Notes under the pieces: model-generated
What the model was told of the DNA's origin: nothing
Database searches by the model: none
What the model saw: the letters and a program-made list of their open reading frames with translations, nothing else
Shown: positions 1 through 26,593 of the stretch, piece after piece
Position numbering within the stretch: the first letter of the stretch is position 1
Layout of the letters: every line of letters begins with the position of its first letter
From: a virus
IMG/VR virus record: IMGVR_UViG_3300020477_000111
Coordinates: 1-26,593 of that record
Direction: 5' to 3' (one strand)
Length of the DNA: 26,593 bases
Position numbers and translations under genes: made by a program

Positions 1-633
1 GATTTACAACGTCAATTAGAACAAACTGAAAAGAAAAATGACCCGTATGCTGAACAAATAGAAGAATTAACTAAAAAAGCAATTCAAAAAATTGATTATA
101 CTAAAGTTAACGAAATGGAAGACTTACACAGACACCAAGAGTTTTTATACAAATTATTAACAGCAAAAGATTCTTTTATTAGAACTAGAATTATAGAACA
201 AAATTTAACATATCTAAATCAACGTTTAGCATTTTTCTTAGGCAAAGTGAAACTGCCACACACAGTTGTTTTCCAATCAGACTTGACTGTGCGTATTGAA
301 GAACTTGGTAGAGAACTAGACTTTGATAATTTAAGCAGAGGCGAAAGAAACAGATTGATATTAAGTTTAAGTTGGGCATTCAGAGATGTATGGGAATCAC
401 TTTATCAACAGATCAACTTGTTGTTTATTGATGAACTTGTAGATGCTGGTATGGATATATCGGGTGTTGAAAGTTCAATGGCGGTGCTAAAAGACATGAG
501 CAGAACACAACAAAAAAATATATTTTTAATATCTCACAAAGACGAATTGGTAAGCAGAGTAAATTCAGTACTAAAAGTTGTAAAAGAAAATGGATTTACA
601 AACTATGCTAATGATGTTGAAATTATTGTTTAG
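1..633 (+). CDS. gp46: Recombination endonuclease subunit gp46 (Rad50/SbcC-like), C-terminal part
   Basis: The frame is open from base 1, so the gene begins left of the window; 210 codons plus stop are visible. The segment is the C-terminal half of an SMC/Rad50-type ATPase. A charged coiled-coil stretch comes first, then the ABC signature LSRGE (331-345), Walker B LLFIDE (418-435) with a following D-loop-like segment, and the H-loop histidine in ISHKDE (codon 535-537). In T4, gp46 with gp47 forms the Mre11-Rad50-like complex that processes DNA ends for recombination-dependent replication. Its 3' end overlaps the convergent minus-strand gene by 11 bases. Other SMC-like ATPases share these motifs, but the T4-like context makes gp46 the best call. 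The Walker A half is outside the window. Confidence 0.87.
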   Translation, partial: DLQRQLEQTEKKNDPYAEQIEELTKKAIQKIDYTKVNEMEDLHRHQEFLYKLLTAKDSFIRTRIIEQNLTYLNQRLAFFLGKVKLPHTVVFQSDLTVRIEELGRELDFDNLSRGERNRLILSLSWAFRDVWESLYQQINLLFIDELVDAGMDISGVESSMAVLKDMSRTQQKNIFLISHKDELVSRVNSVLKVVKENGFTNYANDVEIIV

Positions 634-1426
634 AAATAATTTTTCCTATTCCCCATAAATTATTATTATTATCTTTTAATACATGACAACTATTTGTCTG
701 TTGTAAAGAATTTTGTTTAGCAATTTTTTCATTTGCTTCACTATATTTGTTCCAAGCATAATCTTTTTCAACATTATTCATAATAAAAGAACCACACGTG
801 ATTGCTGTGTGATGCATTTGATCCCATTGGTTCATAAGAGTAATACTATCAATTGATTTTTGTCTACTCCATCTTAATCCTATTCTATTCCATTGTAAGT
901 CAAGTCCTTTTCCAATACTCATACCAAAACTTTGTATGTTTGGATGATCAAAATCAAATTCAATATTTCTAGCAGATTGGAACCAAGCACCGTCTATATG
1001 AATATTAATATTTCTTTCTTCACAGATCTTTAAAATTTTATCCCATTCTGGATGTATATCGCAATATTGCCATATGGGTAAACTTATTATCAAAGGTACA
1101 TTCTCTTTTAATTGATCTATTTGTGTTGGACGTTTTCCGTTAAGTGTATAATAAAGATATTCGTTTGGAAGGTGCTGTATTTTCCACCCATATCGCAGAC
1201 AAGTTGCCTCTATAAAATGCGTACAACCTAACATTACATCCATATGAGTAAATTTGTCCCATCCAGACAAGTTGTTTAATTTTGTACTTTGAAACCATTC
1301 GTTTGCTTGTAAAATAAAGTCTTTTGATTGCACTTGTTTTTGATTAGTTGCAAAAAAATCATTTTTTATTTTCAAAAGATATTTGTCTTCAATTGGATAT
1401 AATGTTTTGCTAACTGAATCTGACAT
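623..1426 (-). CDS. PLP-dependent aminotransferase-like protein (fold type I, short)
   Basis: 267 aa. The middle looks like the large domain of a fold-type I PLP enzyme. The segment IHIDGAWF holds D145, in the place of the aspartate that contacts the pyridine nitrogen. It is followed 28 residues later by SIGKG with K173, the expected Schiff-base lysine, then WNRIGLRWS as in aminotransferases. A preceding stretch PLIISLPIWQYCDIHPEW resembles the segment leading to the cofactor aspartate. At 267 aa it is much shorter than typical class I/II enzymes (about 400 aa), and little of the C-terminal small domain is left. It may be a minimal or catalytically altered form. The start overlaps the end of the upstream oxygenase gene by 17 bases, so the two are probably co-transcribed and coupled. 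Substrate unknown. The fold call comes from motifs only. Confidence 0.55.
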   Translation of the reverse strand: MSDSVSKTLYPIEDKYLLKIKNDFFATNQKQVQSKDFILQANEWFQSTKLNNLSGWDKFTHMDVMLGCTHFIEATCLRYGWKIQHLPNEYLYYTLNGKRPTQIDQLKENVPLIISLPIWQYCDIHPEWDKILKICEERNINIHIDGAWFQSARNIEFDFDHPNIQSFGMSIGKGLDLQWNRIGLRWSRQKSIDSITLMNQWDQMHHTAITCGSFIMNNVEKDYAWNKYSEANEKIAKQNSLQQTNSCHVLKDNNNNLWGIGKIISKQ

Positions 1427-1955
1427 ATAAACTTGTTCTCCCGTCTTTTATAATTTCCTCGACTCCATGATAACTATGTTCATTATTAAGCAAAGCATAT
1501 CCAAAATTTGCTTTGAACGGAAACGTATATAATTCTTTTCTTGTCTTGTCATATAATGTTGTGCCTTTGTTATCGTTGCTAAGATACACTTGTAAATGTA
1601 ACTTAATTCTAGAGTCATCAACGTGTGGTGTTAATTTGTAACCCTTACCATCAATCCAAACATCAACTGATTCAAATTTTAAATTTGTATTAAACTTTTT
1701 TTCTAATGCTTTGGTAATTTGCGTATTCATAAAAAGTATTTTAATTTTTTTTAAATCAATATCATTATCAGACAATTTTACACGATTCAAATGTGTTTGA
1801 TTTTCTAATTTTTCAAAATTTTCTTTCTTGCTAACGTCTAAATTAAAGTTATTACCAAAAAAATTATCATATTCTTGGTAAACTAATCCTTCTAAATTTA
1901 CCAAAGGCGAATTTTCTATTGACAAAACCACTTCTTGTGTGCTTAAATTAAACAT
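1410..1955 (-). CDS. 2-oxoglutarate/Fe(II)-dependent oxygenase
   Basis: 181 aa. The metal and co-substrate signature is complete: H111-x-D113 (PHVDD), the distal histidine H163 (SYHGV), and R173 ten residues later for 2-oxoglutarate. Between them LHLQVYLSNDNKGTTLYD is a typical jelly-roll strand pair. Such enzymes hydroxylate proteins, nucleotides or small molecules, and small prolyl-4-hydroxylase-like versions are common in marine T4-like phages. It is the first gene of a two-gene minus-strand unit with the PLP-like gene, which suggests sequential modification of one substrate (inference). The promoter sits immediately upstream, leaving a leader of only a few bases and no Shine-Dalgarno. Family confidence is high; substrate unknown. 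Confidence 0.8.
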   Translation of the reverse strand: MFNLSTQEVVLSIENSPLVNLEGLVYQEYDNFFGNNFNLDVSKKENFEKLENQTHLNRVKLSDNDIDLKKIKILFMNTQITKALEKKFNTNLKFESVDVWIDGKGYKLTPHVDDSRIKLHLQVYLSNDNKGTTLYDKTRKELYTFPFKANFGYALLNNEHSYHGVEEIIKDGRTSLYVRFS

Positions 1956-1965
1956 ATGTTAATTA

Positions 1966-1994
1966 ATTATATCGTACGAACATAGGAAGGACAA
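1966..1994 (-). promoter_or_regulatory. Sigma70-type promoter of the oxygenase/PLP pair
   Basis: Read on the minus strand: TTGTCC (1994-1989), 17-base spacer, TATAAT (1971-1966). The oxygenase ATG (1955) lies 10 bases past the -10 box, so the predicted leader is about 3-5 bases. The -35 box overlaps the Shine-Dalgarno of the divergent plus-strand gene at 2001. Confidence 0.55.
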
Positions 1995-2000
1995 AAAGAT

Positions 2001-2189
2001 ATGTCACAAACACATGAACAGATCATGACAGAGATTCAAAACTACTCTGAAGAGAACGGCAAGTTCACAGAGAAGGGTGTTAAGGCATCTGCAACAAGAG
2101 CCAGAAAAGCATTAGCGAATCTTTCTAAATTGATCAAAGCAAGAAGAAAAGAAATTCAAGAGGCGAAAAACGCGGCTAAGGCGGCGTAA
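2001..2189 (+). CDS. Hc1/H1-like small basic nucleoprotein
   Basis: 62 aa, strongly basic. The pattern EKGVKASATRARKALANLSKLIKARRKEIQEAK matches the Hc1-type bacterial histone H1-like family, in which a KGxKxAxxRARKAL core precedes a basic amphipathic helix. Such proteins bind DNA non-specifically and may compact phage or host DNA. The start is supported by a good Shine-Dalgarno (AGGAAGGA at 1984-1991). The gene stands alone, divergent from the oxygenase pair and closed by a terminator 30 bases after its stop. The tail is alanine/lysine-rich, encoded with GCG-GCN alanine pairs. Confidence 0.7.
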   Translation: MSQTHEQIMTEIQNYSEENGKFTEKGVKASATRARKALANLSKLIKARRKEIQEAKNAAKAA

Positions 2190-2217
2190 AGAATTTTACT
2201 TGAATTAATTCAAATAA

Positions 2218-2248
2218 ACCCTCGGCTTTTACTAGTCGGGGGTTTTTC
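2218..2248 (+). terminator. Rho-independent terminator after the Hc1-like gene
   Basis: A 10-bp stem with two G-U pairs (2218-2227 with 2234-2243) and a six-base loop is followed directly by a short T run. It closes the single-gene unit at 2001-2189. Confidence 0.85.
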
Positions 2249-2679
2249 TATTTTAAAATACCCTTTGTAGATTTTTCTCTGAGAATTCCAGAACCGTGTA
2301 TTCGCACACGAATATGACCATTATAATAATCATCAGTTTCTAAAACTTTACGTGCAAACTGTTCTCTGGCTTCAATGTATGATAGTTCTGCTTTTGATTT
2401 GCAGTAGAAAAGTATTTCTCTTTTAAAATTATCTTTACCAAATTTTTCAATGTCCTCATTTAAAGCATCACTCGAACCATAGTAATGTTGCCAATCACTG
2501 GACACAGTGTACCTACGTTTGTTAACTCTGCCCTTTAAAGGTCTACGTGACTTTCTAAATCTTGCTAATTTTTTGCCAATATACATCCTACCATTGGTTG
2601 TATTTGTTATTTGATAAACAAATCCTACACAATCATTTGGTAATTCTATAATGTCTTTTCCTTGGTACTGCCAATTCAT
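2248..2679 (-). CDS. GIY-YIG family endonuclease (Seg-like)
   Basis: 143 aa from the chosen start; the frame is open to an ATG at 2745. The core GFVYQITNTTNGRMYIGKK carries the GIY (here FVY) and YIG elements. Downstream are basic residues for DNA contact and conserved-looking YYGSS, FKREIL and EAREQF segments, the last providing the expected glutamate. Related proteins are widespread in T4-like marine phages and are usually called Seg-like homing endonucleases. I chose ATG 2679 because the extra N-terminal 22 residues look non-homologous and a late-promoter motif (TTTAAATA) ends 5 bases upstream of this ATG. Next to it, facing away, is a structured non-coding region. Whether it is a homing nuclease or has a resident role in DNA processing cannot be decided here. 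Confidence 0.75.
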   Translation of the reverse strand: MNWQYQGKDIIELPNDCVGFVYQITNTTNGRMYIGKKLARFRKSRRPLKGRVNKRRYTVSSDWQHYYGSSDALNEDIEKFGKDNFKREILFYCKSKAELSYIEAREQFARKVLETDDYYNGHIRVRIHGSGILREKSTKGILK

Positions 2680-2684
2680 AATCA

Positions 2685-2692
2685 TATTTAAA
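2685..2692 (-). promoter_or_regulatory. Late-type promoter motif of the GIY-YIG gene
   Basis: Minus strand TTTAAATA, then TGATT, then ATG at 2679. The spacing of 5 bases places the predicted T4-type late start at or next to the start codon. No Shine-Dalgarno is visible. Confidence 0.5.
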
Positions 2693-2702
2693 GCCAAAAA
2701 GA

Positions 2703-2731
2703 TTGACCTTAAAAGAAAACTCATATAAACA
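2703..2731 (+). promoter_or_regulatory. Candidate promoter of the structured RNA
   Basis: TTGACC (2703-2708), 15-base spacer, TATAAA (2724-2729). The spacer is short for sigma70. The stretch TATAAACA (2724-2731) is also one mismatch from the late box TATAAATA. Either would start transcription near 2736-2738. Confidence 0.3.
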
Positions 2732-2736
2732 TATGC

Positions 2737-3080
2737 GATAGGCACATCACAATTTCAATCAGGCAAACATAGCATCTCGACCAGTGAGCAGGGAAATGCG
2801 GCTAACAAGCGACAGGTGAATCCCTTGATGCAAACAGCAAAAATGAAGAGGCTCTGAGAAAAAGCAACCTCAAGTCTATTATGAATTATCATACAAAGGC
2901 ATAGTAGGCTCGCGTTGGAAGTATGAGTTAACGGGTACAGCACAACCGCCCGGCCAATTTGGTAACGATGTATGGTGACTGCGAACTCGCCACATGGGTT
3001 AAAGTCAGTACGGCTAGAAATAGCCGTATTGTGACTGCTCATCTGCCACATAGGACGCAAATTGCGTTCAAGTTTTTTTA
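2737..3080 (+). ncRNA. Unidentified structured non-coding RNA
   Basis: No convincing gene lies here, and the base composition is visibly more G+C-rich than the neighbouring genes. Many local helices form on the plus strand: 2772-2776 with 2827-2831; inside it 2790-2794 with 2821-2825; 2932-2935 with 2949-2952; 2973-2978 with 2987-2992; and a perfect 8-bp stem 3009-3016/3021-3028 capped by GAAA, itself enclosed by 3004-3007/3032-3035. A 23-base element (2976-2998) recurs at 3032-3054 with 17 of 23 identities (TGACTGC...GCCACAT...GG). A stem plus T7 at 3053-3079 ends it on the plus strand. I tested it by eye against tRNA, tmRNA, RNase P, group I and group II cores without a match. Boundaries are estimates. 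Confidence 0.5.
3053..3079 (+). terminator. Terminator of the structured RNA
   Basis: Six-bp stem (3053-3058 with 3064-3069, loop AAATT) followed after three bases by seven T residues. It fixes the plus strand as the coding strand of the RNA. Confidence 0.55.
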
Positions 3081-3094
3081 TACTGCGTTAAGTT

Positions 3095-6783: not shown

Positions 6784-8517
6784 ATGGCTTGGAAAAAATA
6801 TTTTAAAGACGCTAATCTTTCTCCAATTTCAGGAGAAAAAGTACCTAATTTTGCGAAGAGAAATTACTCATCTTATTTGCCTGATGTTTACACAGGACAT
6901 CCAAATAGAATACAGAGATATTTTCAATATGACCAAATGGATTCTGATTCAGAAATCAATGCGGCATTAGATATACTTGCAGAATTTTCAACACAACAAA
7001 ACAAAGAAAACGAAACTCCATTTGATATTGTGTTCAAAGACGAAACTACAGAACACGAAGTTAAACTTTTAAAGAAAGCACTTCAACAATGGACAAAAGC
7101 AAACAAACTTACTAAAAGAATTTTTAGAATATTTAGAAATGCATTGAAATATGGAGACTGTTTCTTTGTAAGAGATCCAGAAACGTACAAATGGTTGTAC
7201 ATTGACAACGCAAAAGTTGACAGAATAGTTGTTAACGAATCAGAAGGTAAAAAACCTGAACAATATGTTGTAAGAGATATCAATCCAAACCTACAAAGAT
7301 TAAGTGCAACACAAATTACACCCAATCAAACATATGGTGGTGGTGGAACAACAGGTGGTGGTACTGCGGCATACGGTCAAAGTTATGCAAACGCAGGTGC
7401 AACTGCCAATATGTCAGGATTTGCTGGAACATCGGGTGGTAGATTCTACAGAACAATGAATGCGTACAACATAAATGCAGAACACGTTGTACATATGTCA
7501 ATGTCAGATGGTTTAGATAACTTATTTCCGTTTGGACAGTCAGTATTAGAACAAGTTTTCAAAGTTTACAAACAAAAAGAATTATTAGAAGACGCAATTA
7601 TCATTTACAGGGTACAAAGAGCACCTGAAAGAAGAGTATTTTACATCGACGTAGGTAATATGCCAACACACTTGGCTATGCAATTCGTTGAGAGAGTCAA
7701 GAACGAAATTAATCAAAGAAGAATTCCAAGCACATCAGGTGGTGTCAACTATATTGATGCAACTTATAATCCAATGAGTATTAATGAAGATTACTTCTTT
7801 CCGCAAACAGCAGAAGGAAGAGGATCTAAAGTTGATACACTACCGGGTGGTACTAACTTGGGTGAAATAGATGACCTTAAATTCTTTACAAACAAACTGT
7901 TCAGAGGTTTAAGAATACCAAGTTCTTATTTGCCAACTGGACCAGATGATTCACAACAACAGTACAATGACGGTAGAGTAGGTACTGCATACATTCAAGA
8001 ATTAAGATTTAACAAATATTGTGCAAGATTACAATCAATGTTGAACCCAACATTCGATGAAGAGTTTAAAATGTGGATAAAAAGCAAAGGTTACAACATA
8101 GACAATGGTATGTTTGAACTAAAACTTAATCCACCACAAAACTTTGCACAGTATAGACAGACAGAAATGGATCAAACTAGAATTCAATCATTTGTACAGG
8201 TAGCAGACTTGCCTTATATTTCTAAAAGATTTGCGTTAAAAAGATATCTTGGACTTACTGAAGAAGAAATGGCTCAAAATGCTGATCAGTGGGCAGAAGA
8301 AAACAATGTACCTCAAAGAAAACAAAGCAAAAATGCTCAACTTAGATCAGGTGGAGTATCCAAAGCAGGTATTACTTCGGATTTAGACCAATTTGAAGAG
8401 CCAACAGCAGAACCAGAAGCACCAGAACCGGGACAACCAGGAGCAGGAGCACCAGGCACAACACCAGGTGGTGGAGGAGTTATACCAGGTGGCACAGGTG
8501 GAGGAACACCTACATAA
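6784..8517 (+). CDS. gp20: Portal vertex protein gp20
   Basis: 577 aa. Strong T4-like portal features: NRIQRYFQYDQMDSDSEINAALDILAEF near the N-terminus, ALKYGDCFFVRDPE, and the hallmark TLPGGTNLGEIDDLKFFTNKLFRGLRIPSSYL segment. The dodecameric portal starts head assembly and is the DNA entry and exit channel. It is slightly longer than T4 gp20 (524 aa) because of a glycine/alanine-rich insertion (about residues 184-219) and a Pro/Gly-rich tail (about 535-577). The start overlaps a TATAATAA stretch (6773-6780) and lacks a clear Shine-Dalgarno, so translation may be coupled to the tape-measure gene, whose stop is at 6775-6777. Confidence 0.93.
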   Translation: MAWKKYFKDANLSPISGEKVPNFAKRNYSSYLPDVYTGHPNRIQRYFQYDQMDSDSEINAALDILAEFSTQQNKENETPFDIVFKDETTEHEVKLLKKALQQWTKANKLTKRIFRIFRNALKYGDCFFVRDPETYKWLYIDNAKVDRIVVNESEGKKPEQYVVRDINPNLQRLSATQITPNQTYGGGGTTGGGTAAYGQSYANAGATANMSGFAGTSGGRFYRTMNAYNINAEHVVHMSMSDGLDNLFPFGQSVLEQVFKVYKQKELLEDAIIIYRVQRAPERRVFYIDVGNMPTHLAMQFVERVKNEINQRRIPSTSGGVNYIDATYNPMSINEDYFFPQTAEGRGSKVDTLPGGTNLGEIDDLKFFTNKLFRGLRIPSSYLPTGPDDSQQQYNDGRVGTAYIQELRFNKYCARLQSMLNPTFDEEFKMWIKSKGYNIDNGMFELKLNPPQNFAQYRQTEMDQTRIQSFVQVADLPYISKRFALKRYLGLTEEEMAQNADQWAEENNVPQRKQSKNAQLRSGGVSKAGITSDLDQFEEPTAEPEAPEPGQPGAGAPGTTPGGGGVIPGGTGGGTPT

Positions 8518-12214: not shown

Positions 12215-13387
12215 ATGTCAGAACTATTTGAATCTAAATGGAGCGAAACTAAACAGGCTCTAACTGAAGGTTTAGACGGCAACAAGAAAAAGACGATGGA
12301 TGTTATCTTAGAAAACACTAAGAAATATTTGTCAGAACAAGCAACTGCAGGTGCTACATCGGCAGGTAACGTTGCTACTCTAAACAGAGTGATTCTTCCA
12401 GTAATACGTAGGGTTATGCCTACTGTTATAGCGAACGAGATCGTTGGTGTACAACCAATGACTGGTCCGGTTGGACAGATCCACACACTAAGAATAAGAT
12501 ATGCAGACACAGTAAGTTCGAACACAACTGCTGGTGAAGAAGCATTATCTCCGTTCAAAATAGCGAAAGCATACGCTGGTAACCAGAACAACACAACTCC
12601 TAAAGCGGCTTCTACAGCATCTTTAGAAGGTACACCTGGTAAGAGATTATCAATTCAAATCTTGAAACAACCAGTTGAGGCGAAATCAAGAAAACTATCT
12701 GCAAGATGGACTTTTGAAGCGGCTCAAGATGCTCAAGCACAACAAGGTATAGACGTAGAAGCAGAAATCATGGCGGCTTTGGCTCAAGAGATTACTGCTG
12801 AGATTGACCAAGAAATCATTGGTTCATTAAGAACTTTGGCTGGCTCTGCCGCTGAAACTTTTGACCAAGCGGCTGTATCTGGTACTGCAACTTTCGTTGG
12901 TGACGAACACGCGGCTTTGGCTGTGTTAATCAACAGAGTAGCAAACCAAATCGCTACAAGAACTAGAAGAGGCGCTGGAAACTACGCGGTAGTATCTCCA
13001 ACTGCTTTAACTATTCTTCAATCAGCAACAACTTCAGCATTTGCAAGATCAACTGAAGGTACATTTGAAGCACCTACTAACACAAAATTTGTTGGTACGT
13101 TAAATGCTTCAATGAGAGTATACGTAGACGCATACGCGGCTGACGGTACTTCAATCCTAGTTGGTTACAAAGGTTCAAGTGAGGCAGACGCTCCGGCGTT
13201 CTACTGTCCTTACATACCTTTAATGTCAAGTGGCGTTGTTCTTGATCCTGCAACTTTCGAACCAGTTGTTGGTTTCCTAACAAGATACGGTTATGTTGAA
13301 TTAACAAACACTGCATCTTCACTAGGTAACGCGGCAGACTACGTTGGATTAGTAGCAGTAACTTCAGGAAACTTAAAATTCAAGTAA
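12215..13387 (+). CDS. gp23: Major capsid protein gp23
   Basis: 390 aa. The segment TLNRVILPVIRRVMPTVIANEIVGVQPMTGPVGQIHTLRIRY is the signature of T4-like major capsid proteins (HK97 fold), and the C-terminal GVVLDPATFEPVVGFLTRYGYVELT also matches. It is shorter than T4 gp23 (521 aa). Two candidate gp21 sites of the (L/I)-x-E type lie in the N-terminal region, ILE ending at residue 33 and LSE ending at 41; cleavage at either would remove a short delta peptide. AAGGGGA precedes ATG 12215. Alanine pairs are written GCG-GCN throughout. It ends the head block at a strong terminator. No gp24 vertex homologue is visible in this window. Confidence 0.95.
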   Translation: MSELFESKWSETKQALTEGLDGNKKKTMDVILENTKKYLSEQATAGATSAGNVATLNRVILPVIRRVMPTVIANEIVGVQPMTGPVGQIHTLRIRYADTVSSNTTAGEEALSPFKIAKAYAGNQNNTTPKAASTASLEGTPGKRLSIQILKQPVEAKSRKLSARWTFEAAQDAQAQQGIDVEAEIMAALAQEITAEIDQEIIGSLRTLAGSAAETFDQAAVSGTATFVGDEHAALAVLINRVANQIATRTRRGAGNYAVVSPTALTILQSATTSAFARSTEGTFEAPTNTKFVGTLNASMRVYVDAYAADGTSILVGYKGSSEADAPAFYCPYIPLMSSGVVLDPATFEPVVGFLTRYGYVELTNTASSLGNAADYVGLVAVTSGNLKFK

Positions 13388-14163: not shown

Positions 14164-15102
14164 ATGGCAAGACAAAAAATTAAATGGTTATTGTTTCATG
14201 AACCAGCAGAACTTTTCATTAGAACTGCTGAAGATTTTCAGAAACATCTAGATACACTTACAAATAACAAGTATGAGATAGAGATTCTTACACTTACAGA
14301 CTACCAAAACAAGTATCTTGACGGTTTAATTTGTGATCCTTTCTTAGAATTGAAAGAAGGTAGAGTACAATGTAGCCAACTGTTTTCTGATATACTAGGC
14401 GATTATGACGCTACAGATTTTTATGCTTTATCAATGCCTTATCTATTCAAAGATCACGATCATGCATCAAGAGTTTTTGAAGGAGAAATTGGCAAATCAC
14501 TTTTTGCACATCTATATGAAAAGACACAGGTACGTGGATTATCATTTACATATTCAGGCGGATACAGATGCACAGCATCAAACACTCCTATAAGATCAAT
14601 AGAAGATTTTGCTGGCAAAACATATTCTAGATGGAGAAATCCTGTACACGCTGACATGATTGACATGGTAGGTGCAAAAAAAGTAGATCGTTTAACTGAT
14701 TCAAAAACAGACTGGGACAAAGTTAATGTTACACAAACAACTTACCCTAGATATCATGCTGATGCACACAGATCACAAAAATATGTTGCAGATACTAAAC
14801 ATTCGATGTATGTAACTTCAATTTTATTGAATGACAGTTTCTGGAGTTCGTTGAGTGCAGAAGATCAAACACATTTTACACAGGCTGGGTTTTTAGCGGC
14901 AAGAAAAGAAAGAGCACAATCAGTTGCTGACGCAGAAGAAATCAAGACTAGTGAATCTAAACAAGAAAAATTAGGTATTGAAGAAGTTATTACATGGCCA
15001 GAAGAAGAAATTAGCAAGTTAAAAACTTTATGGTCACCATTGTATGACAAATACAAAGACTTCTTTGGTAACGACATTTTAGATAAAATCAAAAAAATAT
15101 AA
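14164..15102 (+). CDS. TRAP-transporter substrate-binding protein (DctP)-like, without signal peptide
   Basis: 312 aa. The central region follows the DctP family: MPYLFKDHDHASRVFEGEIGKSLF (91-114), VRGLSFTYSGGYRCTASNTPIRSIEDFAGK (about 123-152), then RWRNPVHADMIDMVGAKKV, and later LLNDSFWSSLSAEDQTHFTQAGFLAARKERAQSV. In DctP proteins an arginine in the segment after the GK binds the substrate carboxylate; here R156 or R158 could serve, though spacing differs by one or more residues. The usual GVVDGxE segment is not recognisable. No N-terminal signal peptide is seen (MARQKIKWLLFHEPAELF), so the product should stay in the cytoplasm or be packed into virions. No TRAP membrane subunits are nearby. 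It has a late promoter and a good Shine-Dalgarno. Confidence 0.72.
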   Translation: MARQKIKWLLFHEPAELFIRTAEDFQKHLDTLTNNKYEIEILTLTDYQNKYLDGLICDPFLELKEGRVQCSQLFSDILGDYDATDFYALSMPYLFKDHDHASRVFEGEIGKSLFAHLYEKTQVRGLSFTYSGGYRCTASNTPIRSIEDFAGKTYSRWRNPVHADMIDMVGAKKVDRLTDSKTDWDKVNVTQTTYPRYHADAHRSQKYVADTKHSMYVTSILLNDSFWSSLSAEDQTHFTQAGFLAARKERAQSVADAEEIKTSESKQEKLGIEEVITWPEEEISKLKTLWSPLYDKYKDFFGNDILDKIKKI

Positions 15103-16900: not shown

Positions 16901-18184
16901 ATGGCTAAAACTCTACGTACATCAGGTGATTACACTATAAAAGCAGGTGATGGGTATAACTCAGGATCTGGTACAAATTCTATCACACTTGATAGTTTAA
17001 ACGTAACTGTCAACGGTAATTTAACAGTTGGTGGTACTTCGTCAACAATTAGCACAACAAACACAGTAATTGAAGATAATATTATAGAATTACAAACAGG
17101 AATTTCAGCCAGTACAAACGATTCAGGAATCATAATTGAAAGAGGATCTACTGGAGATAATGCGGCAATAGTATGGGACGAATCTGCTGACACATTCAAA
17201 TTAGGAACAACAACTGCCACTGGCGCAGACAAATCAGGTGGCATAACTGTAACTGCTGGAGCATTAGAAGTTGCGGCATTAACAGCAACAACAGGAACAT
17301 TTACTGGTGCTGTTACATTATCTGGAGGAATTACTACAGGTGCAATAACAACAAACGAAATTGCAAGTAATGGCTCGAACGCAGATATAAACATTACACC
17401 ACAAGGTACAGGAAAAGTTGTAATAAACAACTTGTCTATTGATGGCGAACTAGGAAATATTACTACTGATAGTTCTAACATGGACATATCTCTTACACCT
17501 CATGGAACAGGTGGCATTCGTATTCCTGATGACATTCAATTACATTTTGGAAACGAAGGAGGATCATTTGGTGATCTTCAAATATGGCATGATGCTGGCG
17601 CACATAGTTACATTAGAGATCAAGGAAGTGGTGATATAAGAATACGTTCTTCAGGAGTAGATATTCGTGCTGATGATGATAGTAGAAGTATAGCAAGATT
17701 TGATGATGATGGCATGACTGTTGAACGTTTAATTATTCAAGATAATATAATTTCGTCGGCTTCAAATGCAGATATTGAAATTAGTCCTAGTGGAACTGGA
17801 AAAGTTGTAATAAACAATTTGTCTATTGATGGTGAACTAGGAAATATTACTTCTGACAGTTCTAACATGGACATAACTGTTACACCTCACGGAACAGGCG
17901 ACTTTAGAGTTGATGGACATATAGGTTTAAAAGTACAAGCAGGAGATGCCGCGGCAGATGGTGACCATGCTCACATTTACGCCAAAGATGATACTTCAAG
18001 TGCTGAAGTGTATGTTCGAGATGAAGCAGGAAACGTTACAAAACTTTCACCACACAATCAAAAAGGAAATTGGGAATACTTTTCTAGAAACGTAATAACA
18101 GGTAAAGTTGTAAGAGTCGATATGGAAGAAATGATTAGAGACATTGAAAAACTTACAGGTAAAGTATATATTAAAGGAGAATAA
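16901..18184 (+). CDS. Modular tail-fibre protein 1
   Basis: 427 aa, rich in G, T, S, N and I, with no cysteine cluster, typical of a beta-structured trimeric fibre. It contains the module VIEDNIIELQTGIS...GIIIERGSTGDNAAIVWDESADTFKLG (about 56-107), shared with two later fibre genes. A 46-residue unit SNADI.I.P.GTGKVVINNLSIDGELGNIT.DSSNMD occurs twice (17375-17512 and 17762-17899; period 387 bases). The C-terminal NQKGNWEYFSRNVITGKVVRVDMEEMIRDIEKL is helical and may be a trimerisation or attachment end. Translation probably starts on a leaderless transcript. The stop is two bases before the next start. Confidence 0.75.
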   Translation: MAKTLRTSGDYTIKAGDGYNSGSGTNSITLDSLNVTVNGNLTVGGTSSTISTTNTVIEDNIIELQTGISASTNDSGIIIERGSTGDNAAIVWDESADTFKLGTTTATGADKSGGITVTAGALEVAALTATTGTFTGAVTLSGGITTGAITTNEIASNGSNADINITPQGTGKVVINNLSIDGELGNITTDSSNMDISLTPHGTGGIRIPDDIQLHFGNEGGSFGDLQIWHDAGAHSYIRDQGSGDIRIRSSGVDIRADDDSRSIARFDDDGMTVERLIIQDNIISSASNADIEISPSGTGKVVINNLSIDGELGNITSDSSNMDITVTPHGTGDFRVDGHIGLKVQAGDAAADGDHAHIYAKDDTSSAEVYVRDEAGNVTKLSPHNQKGNWEYFSRNVITGKVVRVDMEEMIRDIEKLTGKVYIKGE

Positions 18185-18822: not shown

Positions 18823-18828
18823 TAAATT

Positions 18829-20387: not shown

Positions 20388-21773
20388 ATGGCGGATAAAA
20401 CACCGGTACGGGTAGTCTATAACAATTCTAATGTGGCCACTGGATTGGCAGAATTCCAGTCGGGCGAAACAGTTCCAGTAGCAAGTGGTGGTACAGGTCT
20501 TTCATCAATTGGTTCAGCAGGTCAGGTATTAAAAGTAAATGCGGCGGCATCTGGATTAGAGTTTGGTGCTGAAGGTGATATCTCTATTACAAATTTAGTA
20601 GCACCCACAAACGCAGATTTAACATTCACAACATCAGGTACAGGTAACATAGTACTAGATGAAATCACAGTACGTGGTACAACATTTAGTTCAAGTGACT
20701 CATCATCAATTAACATAAACGAAGGTTTAATTGTAGATGGTACTTTAAACGTATCAGGTGCTGTAAGTTTAGCAGGATTAACGTATCCATCGTCAGATGG
20801 AAGTACAGGACAATTCCTTAAAACAGATGGTTCTGGAACGTTATCATTTGCAAACTTATCTCTAGGAGATTTAACAATAGTAGGATCAACTATTACAACA
20901 CCAAGTAATGCTGATTTTGTATTAGATCCAAGTGGATCAGGAAAAGTTAATATTAATGGTGCTTATACTCTACCATCATCTGATGGAAGTGCAGGACAAG
21001 TATTACAAACTGACGGATCAGGTGCAGTAACATTTGGTACAGTATCAGTTGGTGATTTTACATTTACAGGTTCAACTATAATTTCACCATCAAATGCAGA
21101 TATAACTTTAGATCCAAGTGGATCTGGTGATATTGCTCTTAACGCCAACACAACTATTACAGGAAATTTAACTGTTACTGGTACACAAACAACACTAGAA
21201 ACAACAACGTTAGTTGTTGAAGATCCATTACTAGAATTAGCAAAAAATAATTCAGGTGGTGTTGCTAACTCAATGGACCAAGGATTATTTTTTAATAGAG
21301 GATCATTAAGTAACGTTTCGTTTTTATGGGATGAATCAGCAGATCAATTCGTTTTTGCAGTAACATCTGGAGAAGATGGAACAACATCAGGTAACGTAAC
21401 TCTTGATTCATATGCAAATATACAAGCAGGAGTAGTTACAACTACTGGCAATGTAGTACTAGGAGAAGATGCTACAATAATTTTTGAAGGTGCAACTGAT
21501 AGTGCTAACGAAACAACCCTTACAGTTGTAGATCCAACAGCAGATAGAACAATCAGTTTACCAAATAAATCAGGAACATTAGCAACTACAGATGATACTA
21601 GTTTTCCAGAATCAACAACACCAACACACCCAGCGGCATCAGGAGATGCTGATTTGGGAGATCTAACAACATCGATCACTGACGCTTTTAGTGTTCCAAC
21701 AGCAGATTTGTATGATCAAATGGAGCCAAGAGGCTCAACAACATCAGTAGATCTAGGAAGTGTAGCATCATAA
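20388..21773 (+). CDS. Modular tail-fibre protein 3
   Basis: 461 aa. The N-terminus MADKTPVRVVYNNSNVATGLAEFQSGETV is a type I associate with the start of fibre proteins in marine T4-like phages. Next come two copies of a unit of about 62 residues, (P)SSDGS.GQ.L.TDGSG...F...S.GD.T..GSTI..PSNAD..LDPSGSG. It then carries the shared module LVVEDPLLELAKN...GLFFNRG...FLWDESADQF (about 283-325). A final LPNKSGTLATTD element precedes a short disordered end. All features point to a long beta-helical fibre. Confidence 0.75.
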   Translation: MADKTPVRVVYNNSNVATGLAEFQSGETVPVASGGTGLSSIGSAGQVLKVNAAASGLEFGAEGDISITNLVAPTNADLTFTTSGTGNIVLDEITVRGTTFSSSDSSSININEGLIVDGTLNVSGAVSLAGLTYPSSDGSTGQFLKTDGSGTLSFANLSLGDLTIVGSTITTPSNADFVLDPSGSGKVNINGAYTLPSSDGSAGQVLQTDGSGAVTFGTVSVGDFTFTGSTIISPSNADITLDPSGSGDIALNANTTITGNLTVTGTQTTLETTTLVVEDPLLELAKNNSGGVANSMDQGLFFNRGSLSNVSFLWDESADQFVFAVTSGEDGTTSGNVTLDSYANIQAGVVTTTGNVVLGEDATIIFEGATDSANETTLTVVDPTADRTISLPNKSGTLATTDDTSFPESTTPTHPAASGDADLGDLTTSITDAFSVPTADLYDQMEPRGSTTSVDLGSVAS

Positions 21774-21812: not shown

Positions 21813-24770
21813 ATGCCAACAACACTACAACTTAGAAGAGGAAACACTACACAAAACAACTCCTTTACAGGAGCGGCAGGTGAAATTTCTTTTGATACAA
21901 CTACTAATACTCTAAGAATACATGACGGATCAACAGCAGGTGGTTATCAAATTGTTAGTGCAACAGCATCACAGACTTTAACAAATAAAACTTTAACAAG
22001 TCCAACAATTAATGGCGGTACTTTTAGTGGTACTTTTACTGGAACAATTTCTCCAGGTGCAATTACTACAAACTCAATTACATCTAATGGATCAAATGCA
22101 GATATAAGCATTCAACCAAGTGGTACAGGTGATATAGTTTTAAGTGCATTAAGAGTAAATGGTACAACACTAGACTCATCAGATTCATCTACAATTAACA
22201 TAAATGAAAATACTATTGTTGACGGAACATTAACAGTTTCAGGTGCATTAGCATCATCAACAAGTTTAGCACTGGCAAGCGGTGCAACTGTTACAGCAAT
22301 ACTTGATGAAGATGCTATGGGTACTGACAGTGCCACAGCACTAGCAACTCAACAATCAATCAAAGCATATGCAGATACAAAAGCGGCACTAACAGGTTCA
22401 ACAGATAATACAATAGCAACTGTGACAGGTGCTCATGCACTTCAAGGTGAAGCAAACCTAACATTTGACGGAAGTACTCTTGGAATTTCTGGTGCGGCAA
22501 CTATTTCAACAACGTTAGCAGTAACCGGAGCGGCAACATTTACTGGTGGAGTTACAACAGGTGCTTTAACAACAAACGCAATTACTTCAAATGGTTCAAA
22601 CGCAGATTTAAGTTTACAACCAAGTGGTACAGGTGACGTACTAATCAGTGCGTTAAGAGTAAACGGAACTACACTTGATTCATCTGATTCATCTACAATT
22701 AATATTAATGAAGCATTAATAGTTGATGGTACAGCAACAGTATCAGGTGCATTAGCATCATCAACATCATTAGCATTGGCAAGTGGTGCAACAGTAACAG
22801 GTATAGCAGACGAAGATGATTTAACTTCTAACAGTGACACACTACTAGCAACACAGCAATCAATCAAAGCATATGTTGATGCACAGGTTACAGCATCAGA
22901 CTTAGACTTTCAAGGTGATTCAGGTGGTGCTCTTTCAATTGATCTAGATTCAGAAACAATGACGTTTACTGGTGGAACAGGTATTGACACATCAGGATCA
23001 GGCAACGCAGTAACGTTTGCAATTGATTCAACAGTTGCAACATTAACAGGTTCACAAACTTTAACAAATAAAACTATAACAAGTCCAACAATTTCAACAC
23101 CAACAGTAACAGGAACACTAACAGCAACTTCAGTTACAACAAATGACATTGTATCTAATGGTTCAAATGCTGATATTACTTTAGACCCAACAGGTACTGG
23201 AGATATTAATTTGACTGCAGGTGCAGATGTAAACTTACCAGCAGACATAGGATTAACATTTGGTAATGATGGTGAAAAGATTGAAGGTGACGGAACAGAT
23301 TTAACAATTTCAACTTCTAACAATGTAACAATAGATGCCGCGGCAGATATAATTTTAGACGCCGGTGGTGCTGATATTACTTTCAAAGATGACGGAACTA
23401 CTTTTGGTGGCATAACAAATAGTGGTGGTGAAGTTGTTATTAAATCAAGTTCATCTAGTACAACAGCATTAACATTTAGTGGTGCAAACGTTACAGGTGC
23501 TGGTACAATTACAGCAACAAGTTTTATAATGTCTGGATCAAATGCAATTACTGTCAGCGACAATCAGATTACAACTGGAGGATCCAACGCAGATATTAAT
23601 CTTGTTCCACATGGAACAGGTCAAGTTAAATTTAATGATGCTTATACATTTCCAACATCAGATGGTACTAATGGTACAGCACTTGTAACAGATGGATCGG
23701 GAGCATTATCATTTAGTACTGTAGGAGATGCATCTGCTAGTGACGACGGTGCCGGTGTTGCTATTGCGGATAAAAGAATTACATCAACAGCAAGAACAAT
23801 TGATTCATGGCATTCAACATTCCAAGACAGTGTTTTATATTATGTTGTATCAAATGATCACAATGAGGACTGTGTAAACATACAAAAAGTTTCAGTATGT
23901 CATGATGATACCACAGCATACATTAGTTCAGCAGGTGCTCAATCAAAAGCATCAACAACAATGACGGCATTTACAGCGGCACTAGATAACGATATGGTTA
24001 GATTAAAAGCGGCAAGTTCAAATGCTGTTGGCGGTACATTATCTTTTTACAAATTTGGATTGGGAGACAACACATCAACTGGAACATCAGGAAATGTAAT
24101 CATATCTCAAAACACAGATGTTGATTCAGCATCAGAATCACTTGTAAGTTTTGCTCATGGCACTTACAGAGGTGCAAAACTTTTCATTTCAATCAATAAC
24201 AATGCTAAAACAGAAGTAGGAAACGTTGAAGCACTTGTTGTTCATGACGGAAGTGATGCATTTATATCACAATTTGGTGGAATACAAACTGGAGATAATC
24301 CTTTGTTAACACTAACAGCGGCAATTGATGGCAGTAACGTTGTTGTTTCAGCGGCAGGTGGCGAAGCAAACTTAAGAGTAACTGTTCATGCAATTATGTT
24401 AAAAGACACAATGACTTCAGACGACGGAACTTATGCAAATACAGAAGCAATAGCACCTGTAACAATTTCATCTACTGCAACAGAAGTTGACACATTAGTT
24501 GAAGCATCAAACAACGGTGCTGTATATTATCTTGTTAGTAAAAATGCTTCTGAAGGCGCTTATGCAGTTAATGAAGTTTTTATGGCAATGGGATCAGGTG
24601 AAATAACAGTAGCAAGTGGTCCATTTGTGAGTACTAAAGGTACTAACCAACTAGCATTTACATCGGACTACAAAGACGATGTTGAAAACACAGGACAGTT
24701 ATTATGTGCATCCACATCAGGTGGATCAACAACTGTTAGTGCATACAGAATAAACTGTTTAGCGAAATAA
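21813..24770 (+). CDS. Large modular tail-fibre protein 4
   Basis: 985 aa. An Mtd-type N-terminal repeat (LQLRRGNTTQNNSFTGAAGE...LRIHDGSTAGGYQI) is followed by SQTLTNKTLTSPTI units. A duplication of about 110 residues appears at 22056-22385 and 22560-22887 (period 504 bases), containing NGSNADISIQPSGTG, SALRVNGTTLDSSDSSTININE and LATQQSIKAY. The C-terminal third (about 659-985) changes character into three related beta-sandwich-like units near 659-755, 776-865 and 892-985, each with a pattern like VYYLVS...EV.....AFIS...T....LTLTAAIDG....A.....G...... This end may be the receptor-contacting tip. It has its own promoter. Confidence 0.75.
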   Translation: MPTTLQLRRGNTTQNNSFTGAAGEISFDTTTNTLRIHDGSTAGGYQIVSATASQTLTNKTLTSPTINGGTFSGTFTGTISPGAITTNSITSNGSNADISIQPSGTGDIVLSALRVNGTTLDSSDSSTININENTIVDGTLTVSGALASSTSLALASGATVTAILDEDAMGTDSATALATQQSIKAYADTKAALTGSTDNTIATVTGAHALQGEANLTFDGSTLGISGAATISTTLAVTGAATFTGGVTTGALTTNAITSNGSNADLSLQPSGTGDVLISALRVNGTTLDSSDSSTININEALIVDGTATVSGALASSTSLALASGATVTGIADEDDLTSNSDTLLATQQSIKAYVDAQVTASDLDFQGDSGGALSIDLDSETMTFTGGTGIDTSGSGNAVTFAIDSTVATLTGSQTLTNKTITSPTISTPTVTGTLTATSVTTNDIVSNGSNADITLDPTGTGDINLTAGADVNLPADIGLTFGNDGEKIEGDGTDLTISTSNNVTIDAAADIILDAGGADITFKDDGTTFGGITNSGGEVVIKSSSSSTTALTFSGANVTGAGTITATSFIMSGSNAITVSDNQITTGGSNADINLVPHGTGQVKFNDAYTFPTSDGTNGTALVTDGSGALSFSTVGDASASDDGAGVAIADKRITSTARTIDSWHSTFQDSVLYYVVSNDHNEDCVNIQKVSVCHDDTTAYISSAGAQSKASTTMTAFTAALDNDMVRLKAASSNAVGGTLSFYKFGLGDNTSTGTSGNVIISQNTDVDSASESLVSFAHGTYRGAKLFISINNNAKTEVGNVEALVVHDGSDAFISQFGGIQTGDNPLLTLTAAIDGSNVVVSAAGGEANLRVTVHAIMLKDTMTSDDGTYANTEAIAPVTISSTATEVDTLVEASNNGAVYYLVSKNASEGAYAVNEVFMAMGSGEITVASGPFVSTKGTNQLAFTSDYKDDVENTGQLLCASTSGGSTTVSAYRINCLAK
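22056..22887 (+). repeat. Large internal duplication in the 985-aa fibre gene
   Basis: Unit 1 at 22056-22385 and unit 2 at 22560-22887 encode about 110 similar residues. The nucleotide match is diverged at third positions in most parts, so it is an old duplication kept for structure. Confidence 0.75.
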
Positions 24771-24773
24771 ATA
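24766..24773 (+). promoter_or_regulatory. Late-type promoter of fibre gene 5
   Basis: AATAAATA overlapping the stop of the 985-aa gene. Predicted leader about 45 bases. GGGAG (24810-24814) precedes ATG 24825; an ATG at 24817 is followed in frame by a stop after two codons. Confidence 0.6.
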
Positions 24774-24824
24774 CAAGCACGTAACTAATACGTAAATTAA
24801 CAATCATGCGGGAGATATGGAACC

Positions 24825-25880: not shown

Positions 25881-25907
25881 TAAATATTAATACTTTTTAA
25901 TAGAATT

Positions 25908-25938
25908 AAAAGGCGGCTTTCGGGTCGCCTTTTTTTTT
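25908..25938 (+). terminator. Terminator closing the fibre operon
   Basis: AAAAGGCGGC/GTCGCCTTTT stem (25908-25933) with loop TTTCGG and nine T. Stem and flanks are nearly identical to the terminator after gp23. On the minus strand the same stem is followed by TTTT and may also end the Nudix transcript. Confidence 0.88.
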
Positions 25939-26365
25939 AGACAATTAAATCTAAAATAGTTTGAAGTTTACCTTTAATTGCTTTGTTATTCAAAGTATTT
26001 TTTAGACCTGCGTGTAAATTTTTAGGCCAACATTCAAAAGCAGTCCAACAATATCCAGAATGTTCTTCATTTAATTTAGGAATAAATTCATTTTCAACTG
26101 CAATAAGATACGTATGAAAGAAAAATTTTTGATCATTTGAAGTGAATAATTCTAAAGGAATTACTTTTTTAAATACTGGCGTACTACCAATTTCTTCTTC
26201 AATTTCTCTTTTTAATCCTTCAAATGCTGATTCAGTAGTACGTGCTTGTCCACCAACTAATCCCCAACTACCTTGTGTTTTTTCGTCAGTTCTTTGCAAA
26301 AACAAAAAACGTTTTGTACTTGTAGCATAGAATAATGCACCTGAACAAATTATATTTTCTTTCAT
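25937..26365 (-). CDS. Nudix hydrolase
   Basis: 142 aa. A complete Nudix box GX5EX7REUXEEXGU runs from G39 to G60 (G-QARTT-E45-SAFEGLK-R53-E54-IE-E57-E58-I-G60). SWGLVGGQ precedes it, as in MutT-type enzymes. It hydrolyses a nucleoside diphosphate linked to some other group; the substrate (dNTP, ADP-ribose, NADH or RNA cap) cannot be told. The C-terminal part after residue 100 is helical. ATG 26365 lies 5 bases after a TATAAT box with no Shine-Dalgarno, so the transcript is probably leaderless. Single gene, convergent with the fibre operon. Confidence 0.85.
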   Translation of the reverse strand: MKENIICSGALFYATSTKRFLFLQRTDEKTQGSWGLVGGQARTTESAFEGLKREIEEEIGSTPVFKKVIPLELFTSNDQKFFFHTYLIAVENEFIPKLNEEHSGYCWTAFECWPKNLHAGLKNTLNNKAIKGKLQTILDLIV

Positions 26366-26370
26366 AACTT

Positions 26371-26399
26371 ATTATAACAATTTATTGTTATTTTATCAA
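26371..26399 (-). promoter_or_regulatory. Near-consensus sigma70 promoter of the Nudix gene
   Basis: Minus strand TTGATA (26399-26394), 17-base spacer, TATAAT (26376-26371), then AAGTT and ATG. The -35 box overlaps the stop codon of the upstream minus-strand gene. It is the best sigma70-type promoter in the window and suggests early expression. Confidence 0.75.
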
Positions 26400-26593
26400 G
26401 GAGTAGTTTCGTCTTGACCAGAATCAACGTTTCCAACATAACCACCGTCAATTACAATACTCCAATTACCAGCAGTATAAAGTCCTTCATATGATTTAAC
26501 CCATTCTGTTCCATTAAATCTATATTGTATTCCTGTATTAGAATTTGTAACGTAATGCTGTGTAGAATCAGGATCTGATGCATCAAAAACTTT
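26396..26593 (-). CDS. C-terminal part of a structural (fibre-like) protein
   Basis: The minus-strand frame is open from the window edge to TGA at 26396-26398, 65 codons plus stop. The visible protein (DASDPDSTQHYVTNSNTGIQYRFNG... then TEWVKSYEGLYTAGNWSIVIDGG) is beta-rich with G, T, N and aromatic residues, typical of short fibre or receptor-binding C-terminal domains. The gene begins beyond the right edge. The family cannot be named from this part. Confidence 0.6.
   Translation of the reverse strand, partial: KVFDASDPDSTQHYVTNSNTGIQYRFNGTEWVKSYEGLYTAGNWSIVIDGGYVGNVDSGQDETTP

What the first reader, a model, noticed from the sequence alone, without database searches (positions are those of the whole stretch)
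1..26593. GCAGC/GCTGC (GCWGC) appears to be completely absent from the window
Reading every line by eye across block boundaries I found no GCAGC and no GCTGC. GCGGC occurs more than 40 times and GCCGC about six times. With about 36% G+C (my estimate) base composition alone would predict roughly 15-20 GCWGC sites, and the many Ala-Ala pairs should add more. Single alanines mostly use GCA or GCT, but Ala-Ala is written GCG-GCN or GCC-GCN, even as GCC-GCG-GCA near 17948 and 23338 and GCG-GCG-GCA near 20541. This looks like purging of one degenerate 5-base site, for example under restriction of GCWGC (the TseI/ApeKI specificity) or because the motif is a regulatory or modification signal in the host.
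Basis: partly seen in the sequence, partly recalled or inferred. Interest (0 to 1): 0.72.

Follow-up and report, generated by a model that had tools for sequence, protein, structure and literature searches.

The report
Phage purged of restriction sites
This piece of a large, probably marine phage has lost every copy of at least three short DNA words of the kind that bacterial restriction enzymes cut, most likely so that it can infect hosts that carry such enzymes; the trick is known, but purging so many words so completely from so much DNA is striking.

Summary
GCAGC/GCTGC is absent from the window: 0 seen, about 18 expected from base composition, 30 from Markov models, 40 from synonymous codon shuffling. 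The two words are reverse complements, so this is one site. The window is a fragment of a T4-like phage whose nearest isolates are jumbo phages. Of 30 relatives in its clade of the portal tree, 27 lack GCWGC (0 of 283 expected in 236 kb). AGCT and RCATGY losses switch separately among relatives. In phage-like contigs of one GTDB bin, 218 kb not used for choosing the contigs hold none of about 725 expected copies of the three words, while related words are near normal and bacterial-type contigs of that bin show no avoidance. No phage DNA methyltransferase and no clear restriction enzyme was found. Best explanation: purging of recognition sites under several host type II restriction systems. The host is unproven; that bin carries two type II-like loci of unknown specificity, one AciI-like. 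The kind is known (Rusinov 2018); the completeness, number of words and amount of DNA are notable.

The parts
1..26593 (.). Region free of GCWGC (GCAGC/GCTGC), AGCT and RCATGY on both strands
   Evidence: 0 of each; codon-shuffle expectations 40.4, 77.3 and 10.5.
1..26593 (.). Compensating excess of GCGGC/GCCGC, mainly GCG-GCN and GCC-GCN alanine pairs (53 GCSGC; 49 of the 50 inside ORFs start on a codon boundary)
   Evidence: counts, frames; GCSGC 50 seen, 13.4 expected; 3.84-fold; the next highest one-base neighbour of GCAGC is GCACC at 1.40.
17948..17956 (+). Example of a dodge: Ala-Ala-Ala written GCC-GCG-GCA
20541..20549 (+). Example of a dodge: Ala-Ala-Ala written GCG-GCG-GCA
23337..23345 (+). 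Example of a dodge: Ala-Ala-Ala written GCC-GCG-GCA
6784..8517 (+). T4-like portal protein (gp20), used to find relatives and build the tree
12215..13387 (+). T4-like major capsid protein (gp23)
   Evidence: 66-73% identity in the 40 records listed, for example Phosso (469 kb), PA5oct (287 kb) and GAP32 (359 kb).

Best explanation
The window is part of a large T4-like phage whose genome has been purged, by selection, of the recognition sites of several type II restriction systems met in its hosts: GCWGC (or GCAGC), AGCT and RCATGY. Unmethylated copies of these words would be cut on entry, so variants with fewer sites survive; sites are lost, often by synonymous changes, until none remain, and new ones are removed as they arise. 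Shown: absence of the words, beyond codon and composition effects, here and in relatives; switching of the set among relatives; absence of the two main DNA-methyltransferase families in the phage DNA searched. Inferred: that the agent is host restriction, that separate systems account for separate words, and which hosts carry them.
For: Zero sites against 40, 77 and 10 expected with protein and codon usage held fixed. In the window's own clade of the portal tree (31 rows, support 100/99) 27 of 30 relatives lack GCWGC: 0 of 283.5 expected in 235,671 b pooled over those 27, the three with sites (L001, L024, L039) left out; they come from 25 metagenome ids. Whole contigs: 0/95 in 88 kb, 0/69 in 53 kb. 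In GTDB bin G050, contigs C10 and C5, picked by a portal or SufB match and not by the words, have GCWGC 0/82, AGCT 0/160, RCATGY 0/98 in 101 kb; the later-read 117 kb of C2, C6, C13 and C19, contigs picked because their first 20 kb lacked the words, have 0/89, 0/169 and 0/129. Specificity is sharp: ACATGC, ACATGT and GCATGC are 0 against 70.5, 49.8 and 14.6 while the other seven NCATGN contexts are present at 0.99-fold or more, as expected of an enzyme reading RCATGY. The words vary separately: at least 5 changes on the tree for GCWGC, 10 for AGCT, 8 for RCATGY; L056 lacks GCWGC but has normal AGCT, L068 lacks AGCT but keeps GCWGC. Bacterial-type contigs of G050 are not depleted (158/113, 721/686, 75/88), as expected of methylated host DNA. 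That bin has two type II-like loci on 27-30% G+C contigs. Elimination of type II sites is a documented strategy of lytic dsDNA phages (PMC6286503: abstract, Discussion and passages read).
Against: No host is proven. Phage contigs of this group sit in bins titled Neomarinimicrobiota, Betaproteobacteria, Pelagibacter, Rickettsiales and SAR86; C5-methyltransferases were found in 3 of 6 such bins, not in those of Betaproteobacteria, Pelagibacter and SAR86. No host gene could be tied to any of the three words; CCGC, the AciI site (recalled), is not avoided (407 seen, 268 expected). Aquatic methyltransferases assigned to GCWGC and AGCT had no partner nuclease in the one study found (PMC6329791, passages). 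L001, L024 and L039 keep the sites, with no protective gene seen in the parts searched (for 25 of 44 ORFs of the latter two). Contigs C13, C19, C12, C22 and C23 of G050 have little or no similarity to the viral proteins used (0-4% covered), so their phage origin rests on the missing words and on G+C. Two further depletions (HGCGCD, AGCCC) fit no enzyme I can name.
Confidence: 0.88

Rival explanations
1. The phage itself makes nucleases that cut the host chromosome at these words and has purged its own genome to be immune.
For: Bacterial-type contigs are full of the words while the phage-like ones have none. Some large viruses make restriction enzymes (recalled). PADLOC gave weak hits (E about 2e-5 to 9e-5) of phage ORFs to type I, type IIG, HNH and homing-endonuclease models that were not followed up.
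Against: No clear type II enzyme in 94 ORFs of the 88-kb relative G013 or in 183 ORFs of 130-650 aa from the G050 pool. The strong REase_II hit of G013 is endonuclease III. The mREase_IV hit of G013 is a ResIII/DEAD helicase, and the same model matches relatives that keep GCWGC (G017, G027, G037, G040) and 14 of 14 control genomes. The corresponding G050 hits were not typed by Pfam. Several words would need several enzymes, each switching with its word.
Confidence: 0.05
2. The host methylates these words and a modification-dependent nuclease of host or phage then cuts them, so the phage avoids becoming methylated.
For: GCWGC and AGCT are methylated in aquatic microbes by enzymes without a partner nuclease (PMC6329791, passages). 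GCWGC is named among sites of modification-dependent enzymes in PMC6286503 (passage).
Against: A host that cut its own methylated words would destroy itself. No modification-dependent enzyme was identified in the phage. PMC6286503 reports only weak avoidance for such enzymes.
Confidence: 0.03
3. The words vanish by mutation, for instance deamination of methylated cytosines, without selection against cutting.
For: All three words hold cytosines that can be methylated. AGTT, the C-to-T product of AGCT, is modestly raised (1.16-fold, z 4.3).
Against: The C-to-T products of GCWGC (GTAGC, GCAGT, GCAAC, ACAGC) are at 0.73, 1.18, 1.10 and 1.10 while GCSGC is at 3.84; W to S is not deamination. AGCA, not a deamination product of AGCT, rises more (1.26) than AGTT. 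A mutational process would hardly give exactly zero of several hundred sites.
Confidence: 0.01
4. A codon-pair preference, a regulatory signal or a sequencing/assembly artefact accounts for the absence.
For: Alanine pairs do use GCG/GCC.
Against: Codon usage held fixed still predicts 40 sites, and no G-CAG-C or G-CTG-C remains. AGCT and RCATGY do not depend on Ala pairs. The absence recurs in 27 loci of 25 metagenome ids and in 5 of 10 GTDB contigs (L099-L102 and L107, the last with only 3.2 expected), while close relatives have the sites.
Confidence: 0.03

Closest known systems
Recognition-site elimination in lytic dsDNA phages (Rusinov et al. 2018, PMC6286503: abstract, Discussion and passages read)
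   Same: Observed/expected under 0.1 with more than 15 sites expected, for short palindromic type II-like words, in a phage with no recognised methyltransferase. The paper calls such sites eliminated and reports complete or almost complete elimination in about one-tenth of viral genomes.
   Different: Here three or more words are gone at once, over 200-300 kb of contigs in one bin, and the set changes among close relatives. The paper pairs sites with known host enzymes; here the host is unknown.
Nucleus-forming jumbo phages (Chimalliviridae; review PMC12707154, passages read)
   Same: Very large phages that must survive host restriction.
   Different: Those shield DNA in a protein nucleus. The phages here are T4-like (gp20, gp23) and lack sites. 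A nucleus gene was not searched for.
Aquatic GCWGC and AGCT methylation (Hiraoka et al. 2019, PMC6329791, passages read)
   Same: The same two words are methylated (m4C) in lake Chloroflexi (GCWGC) and Thaumarchaeota (AGCT).
   Different: Those enzymes are listed without a partner nuclease and lie in other lineages; nothing links them to this phage.
AciI restriction-modification system (Arthrobacter citreus plasmid pAciIRM, CP053690)
   Same: One of two nuclease-like ORFs on G050 contig C15 matches a protein of the pAciIRM plasmid (33.6% over 100% of the ORF); both match halves of one PADLOC type II model and lie by two C5-methyltransferases, whereas pAciIRM has one long methyltransferase gene.
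   Different: Two ORFs instead of one (split or broken); specificity unknown; CCGC (AciI, recalled) is not avoided by the phage-like contigs.

Membership tests
Restriction-site avoidance/elimination in phages | Observed/expected below 0.1 with more than 15 sites expected | tested here: met
   Window: GCWGC 0/29.5, AGCT 0/60.2, RCATGY 0/26.4, the last only 10.5 by codon shuffle. G050 contigs C10 and C5: 0/82, 0/160, 0/98.
Restriction-site avoidance/elimination in phages | Not explained by protein sequence or codon usage | tested here: met
   Codon-preserving shuffles.
Restriction-site avoidance/elimination in phages | Words are orthodox type II (palindromic) specificities | tested here: met
   AGCT, GCWGC and RCATGY are palindromic on inspection; RCATGY is exact among ten NCATGN contexts. 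GCWGC could equally be an asymmetric GCAGC site.
Restriction-site avoidance/elimination in phages | The host encodes the cognate restriction enzyme | tested here: inconclusive
   Host unknown. One co-binned MAG has two type II-like loci of unknown specificity; 3 of 6 such bins have no C5-methyltransferase.
Restriction-site avoidance/elimination in phages | Lytic lifestyle | not testable with these tools
   T4-like genes suggest it; no complete genome or infection data.
Phage protected by its own DNA methyltransferase | Phage encodes a C5 (PF00145) or N6/N4 (PF01555) methyltransferase | tested here: not met
   0 of 46 phage records for each (46 of 80 loci given, mostly fragments). In G050 all five PF00145 matches lie on contigs C15 and C25 and PF01555 has none. 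Dam/D12 and other classes were not searched apart from PADLOC.
AciI-type restriction-modification (the G050 locus) | AciI-like nuclease beside two C5-methyltransferase modules | tested here: met
   PDLC03402 at 1.2e-28 and 2.7e-10, 0 of 14 control genomes; pAciIRM homologue. Whether the two ORFs form a working enzyme is not shown.
AciI-type restriction-modification (the G050 locus) | Same recognition site | not testable with these tools
   Specificity cannot be read from sequence here; CCGC is not avoided by the co-binned phage-like contigs.

The most novel reading that the evidence does not exclude
A group of T4-like jumbo phages found in many metagenomes uses total purging of several restriction words as its main anti-restriction strategy, with no DNA methyltransferase of its own. 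The set of forbidden words (GCWGC, AGCT, RCATGY, and perhaps HGCGCD and AGCCC) changes among close relatives, so it is a readable record of each lineage's host restriction repertoire. It could be used to sort phage from host contigs and to predict hosts of uncultured phages.
Probability: 0.45. Interest if true: 0.65.

Novelty: new member of a known kind. Interest (0 to 1): 0.52.

Why it matters
The paper on site elimination discusses small genome size as one reason why phages reach it more often than bacteria (PMC6286503). Here about 725 expected sites of three kinds are missing from 218 kb of contigs in one bin, so the strategy seems to scale to very large phages. Because the forbidden set differs among close relatives, it gives a way to follow host switches and to read the restriction repertoire of uncultured hosts from phage DNA alone.

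Tried and rejected
Host from co-binned MAGs: phage contigs of this group sit in bins with five different labels, so binning alone does not name the host. Host from phage-borne metabolic genes: the window's DctP matches bacterial proteins at only 19-28% identity, in 14 of 34 genomes, and in none of the seven bins that hold phage contigs. SufB of relative G013 is 78-85% identical to copies in G048 and G050 whose neighbours look phage-like by eye, 69% to copies in the two Neomarinimicrobiota bins and 63-70% to other genomes of G048's order. Neither names a host. Phage-encoded restriction enzyme: the strong PADLOC hits of G013 are endonuclease III and a helicase. Deamination: rejected. GGTACC as a further purged word: rejected. 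HGCGCD as a by-product of GCWGC avoidance: rejected, since L056 lacks GCWGC but keeps HGCGCD (17/27), and site-bearing relatives already run at about 0.6. RCGCGY: not claimed, absent also from eight relatives that keep GCWGC and AGCT (0/34) though present in three others (6/14). The first motif scan had a coding error and printed nothing; one search replaced it. The G047 methyltransferase lies on an 18% G+C stretch (L136) and was set aside because its neighbours look eukaryotic-virus-like by eye. PMC9516812 (marine methylation) holds neither GCWGC nor AGCT in its main text.

Fate of aligned sites: against L001, 2 of 2 GCWGC and 4 of 4 AGCT sites differ from the window synonymously. Against the more distant L024 and L039, codons are synonymous at 4 of 9 and 6 of 18 GCWGC sites and at 14 of 24 and 13 of 26 AGCT sites; the rest lie in codons that also differ in amino acid. 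None was kept.

Choice of the G050 contigs: C10 and C5 were found by protein matches. C2, C6, C13 and C19 were picked after because their first 20 kb lacked AGCT and GCWGC, so that part (80 kb) is circular; I therefore give the rest apart. Similarity to 280 viral proteins covers C10 to 78%, C24 72%, C2 71%, C26 56%, C1 37%, C21 27%, C6 19%, C3 15%, C5 7%, but C13, C19, C12, C22 and C23 only 0-4%. C11, C14, C16, C27 and C28 (32-44% G+C) have the words and no viral similarity. The probability of the novel case was lowered from 0.5 to 0.45 for this reason.


Full report
WHAT WAS CHECKED. The window (26,593 b, 36.4% G+C) has no GCAGC and no GCTGC, 47 GCGGC and 6 GCCGC. Because GCAGC and GCTGC are reverse complements, this is one forbidden site. 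Expected numbers are 18.5 from base composition, 27.6 to 31.6 from Markov models of order 1 to 3, and 40.4 +- 3.2 when each of 29 genes keeps its protein and its codon usage (minimum 31 in 1000 shuffles). Ala pairs use GCG or GCC in 49 of 49 cases although other alanines use GCA or GCT in 529 of 614, and no G-CAG-C or G-CTG-C remains.

MORE THAN ONE WORD. RCATGY is also 0, against 26.4 or 10.5 +- 2.4 (minimum 4). By codon shuffle GATC is high (93 seen, 75 expected), TGCA (127/148) and CATG (47/58) somewhat low, GCGC low (6/20), and GANTC, CCWGG, GGCC, GTAC and GGWCC near expectation.

WHAT THE WINDOW IS. An IMG/VR virus record with T4-like portal and major capsid genes. The best isolates are jumbo phages: Sinorhizobium phage Phosso (469 kb; capsid 73%, portal 54%), Agrobacterium phage Atu_ph07 (490 kb; portal 52%), Pseudomonas phage PA5oct (287 kb; capsid 68%, portal 49%) and others. 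That the window's own phage is jumbo-sized, and marine, is inferred from relatives and from the GTDB bins that hold them. Regions of 30 to 35 kb from Phosso, PA5oct and Vibrio phage 2.275.O have GCWGC 84/71, 65/24 and 62/35 and AGCT 216/129, 88/127 and 159/133.

RELATIVES. A portal search kept 80 IMG/VR loci, with more in the collection. In the window's clade of the portal tree (31 rows, support 100/99) 27 of 30 relatives have no GCWGC (0 of 283.5 expected in 235,671 b pooled), from 25 metagenome ids. The exceptions are L001, whose portal is 95% identical to the window's (8/9), L024 (36/24) and its sister L039 (59/48). Full contigs behave alike: 88 kb 0/95, 53 kb 0/69, 28 kb 0/29, 25 kb 0/30, 21 kb 0/28. 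The words are independent. L056 lacks GCWGC but has AGCT 91/80; L068 and L071 lack AGCT but keep GCWGC; L074 and L075 are low in AGCT and high in GCWGC. On the tree of 81 rows the fewest changes between absent and present are 5 for GCWGC (39 absent, 37 present, 5 not counted), 10 for AGCT (23, 39, 19) and 8 for RCATGY (11, 55, 15). A word counted as absent if 0 were seen with at least 3 expected, so some single absences in short loci, above all of RCATGY, may be chance; loci with a low but non-zero count were not counted.

THE LARGEST TEST. Ten GTDB contigs encode a portal 56-94% identical; five of them have no GCWGC, one of these with only 3.2 expected, and five have some. In the bin G050 (titled Rickettsiales bacterium MED657) several contigs of 34-41% G+C have no AGCT and no GCWGC, whereas 27-30% G+C contigs have normal numbers. 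Contigs C10 (portal) and C5 (SufB), found by protein matches, have GCWGC 0/82, AGCT 0/160 and RCATGY 0/98 in 100,808 b. The parts of C2, C6, C13 and C19 beyond the first 20 kb have 0/89, 0/169 and 0/129 in 117,302 b; the first 20 kb of each were what made me choose them. In all 298,110 b of these six contigs GGTACC is 31/36, GATC 1128/1179 and GTAC 768/921. Twelve pieces of bacterial-type contigs (220,998 b) have the three words at 158/113, 721/686 and 75/88. With codons held fixed in 252 kb of ORFs of the six contigs the zeros stand against 231, 567 and 133, while YCATGR is 197/174 and RCATGR 304/282. Contexts are exact: ACATGC 0/70.5, ACATGT 0/49.8 and GCATGC 0/14.6, all seven other NCATGN contexts at 0.99-fold or more. 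C10 and C2 are 78% and 71% covered by proteins similar to those of the viral records, C6 19%, C5 7% (with matches of 75-80% identity), C13 and C19 1% and 4%, so the phage origin of the last two is not shown by homology. C3 lacks GCWGC but has 7 AGCT (27 expected) and 1 RCATGY; C1, C12, C21 and C24 have 1-2 RCATGY; C22, C23 and C26 have none of the three words. More than one phage may be present.

GRADED DEPLETIONS. HGCGCD is absent from the six G050 contigs (0/129), the window with L019 and L020 (0/35), a set of L036-L060 loci (0/59) and the L016 set (0/43), although site-bearing relatives also run at about 0.6. AGCCC is nearly absent in the three sets that lack both AGCT and GCWGC (3/98, 0/15, 2/23) and runs at 0.48 to 1.3 elsewhere. 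I cannot assign either to an enzyme.

HOW IT LIKELY WORKS. Selection seems to act on the DNA word, not the protein: the excess is in the synonymous neighbour GCSGC (3.84-fold), not in the C-to-T products of GCWGC (0.73 to 1.18-fold); for AGCT the neighbours AGCA and AGTT are modestly raised, 1.26 and 1.16. Differences at aligned sites are synonymous in 6 of 6 cases against L001 and in about a third to a little over half against L024 and L039. No DNA methyltransferase of the two main Pfam families was found in 46 phage records; in G050 all five PF00145 matches lie on C15 and C25. PADLOC scans of 94, 64, 92 and 91 ORFs gave no clear restriction enzyme; the strong hits of G013 are endonuclease III and a helicase, and a few weak hits were not followed. 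The simplest mechanism is cutting of unmethylated incoming DNA by host type II enzymes and survival of site-free variants.

A POSSIBLE HOST, NOT PROVEN. Contig C15 of G050 carries, beside housekeeping genes (named by eye), two C5-methyltransferases and two ORFs matching the two halves of one type II restriction-enzyme model (PDLC03402, 1.2e-28 and 2.7e-10; 0 of 14 control genomes). One of them is homologous to a protein of the Arthrobacter citreus NEB 577 plasmid pAciIRM. The two ORFs may be subunits or one broken gene. C25 carries methyltransferase - HNH-like protein - methyltransferase; the HNH-like protein has no PADLOC match and resembles annotated HNH endonucleases over about a quarter of its length. 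Two systems of this kind would fit a host that forces a phage to lose several words, but their specificities are unknown, CCGC is not avoided, other bins hold similar phages, and 3 of 6 such bins have no C5-methyltransferase.

COMPARED WITH WHAT IS KNOWN. Site elimination is well documented. Rusinov et al. (PMC6286503) define it as observed/expected under 0.1 with over 15 sites expected, find it for orthodox type II sites mainly in non-temperate dsDNA phages, and report complete or almost complete elimination in about one-tenth of viral genomes. This case meets the numerical criteria. In Lake Biwa, GCWGC and AGCT are methylated in Chloroflexi and Thaumarchaeota by enzymes listed without a partner nuclease (PMC6329791). 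I found no paper on multi-word purging in jumbo or marine phages in the listings; I opened only PMC6286503, PMC6329791, PMC9516812 and PMC12707154, and subscription papers are mostly not in that library. I therefore file it as a new, unusually complete member of a known kind.

Noticed in passing
window 14164-15102 (+): A TRAP-transporter solute-binding protein (DctP, Pfam 4.3e-29) in a phage; no locus held at that time (L001-L109) has it, and only two fecal phage fragments match, at 24-29% identity, in the phage collection.
   Followed up: partly
L081:10429-11751 (-), L083:2749-4179 (-): An 88-kb relative carries a TctA transporter protein and a SufB Fe-S assembly protein. With the window's DctP this suggests that this phage group carries transport and Fe-S genes.
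   Followed up: partly
G050 contigs C6, C10, C13 or C19 (alignment A4): One ORF matches Pycsar cyclase models (1.5e-26) and four match viperin models (9.3e-17); one matches a QueC model weakly (1.2e-5).
   Followed up: no
window, L019, L036-L060 set, L016 set and G050 contigs: HGCGCD is absent and AGCCC nearly absent in some of the groups; GGCGCN is not. No enzyme with such a specificity is known to me.
   Followed up: partly
L043: CTNAG (DdeI-type word, name recalled) 0 of 26 expected in 8.5 kb, seen only in this relative.
   Followed up: no
window 2248-2688 (-): SegE-like GIY-YIG endonuclease (3.7e-36), possibly a homing endonuclease.
   Followed up: no
G050 (GTDB bin titled Rickettsiales bacterium MED657): The bin mixes phage-like contigs without AGCT and GCWGC with bacterial-type ones that have them; no contig with 19% or more viral similarity has either word, but C3 (15%) has 7 AGCT and several word-free contigs lack viral similarity.
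   Followed up: partly
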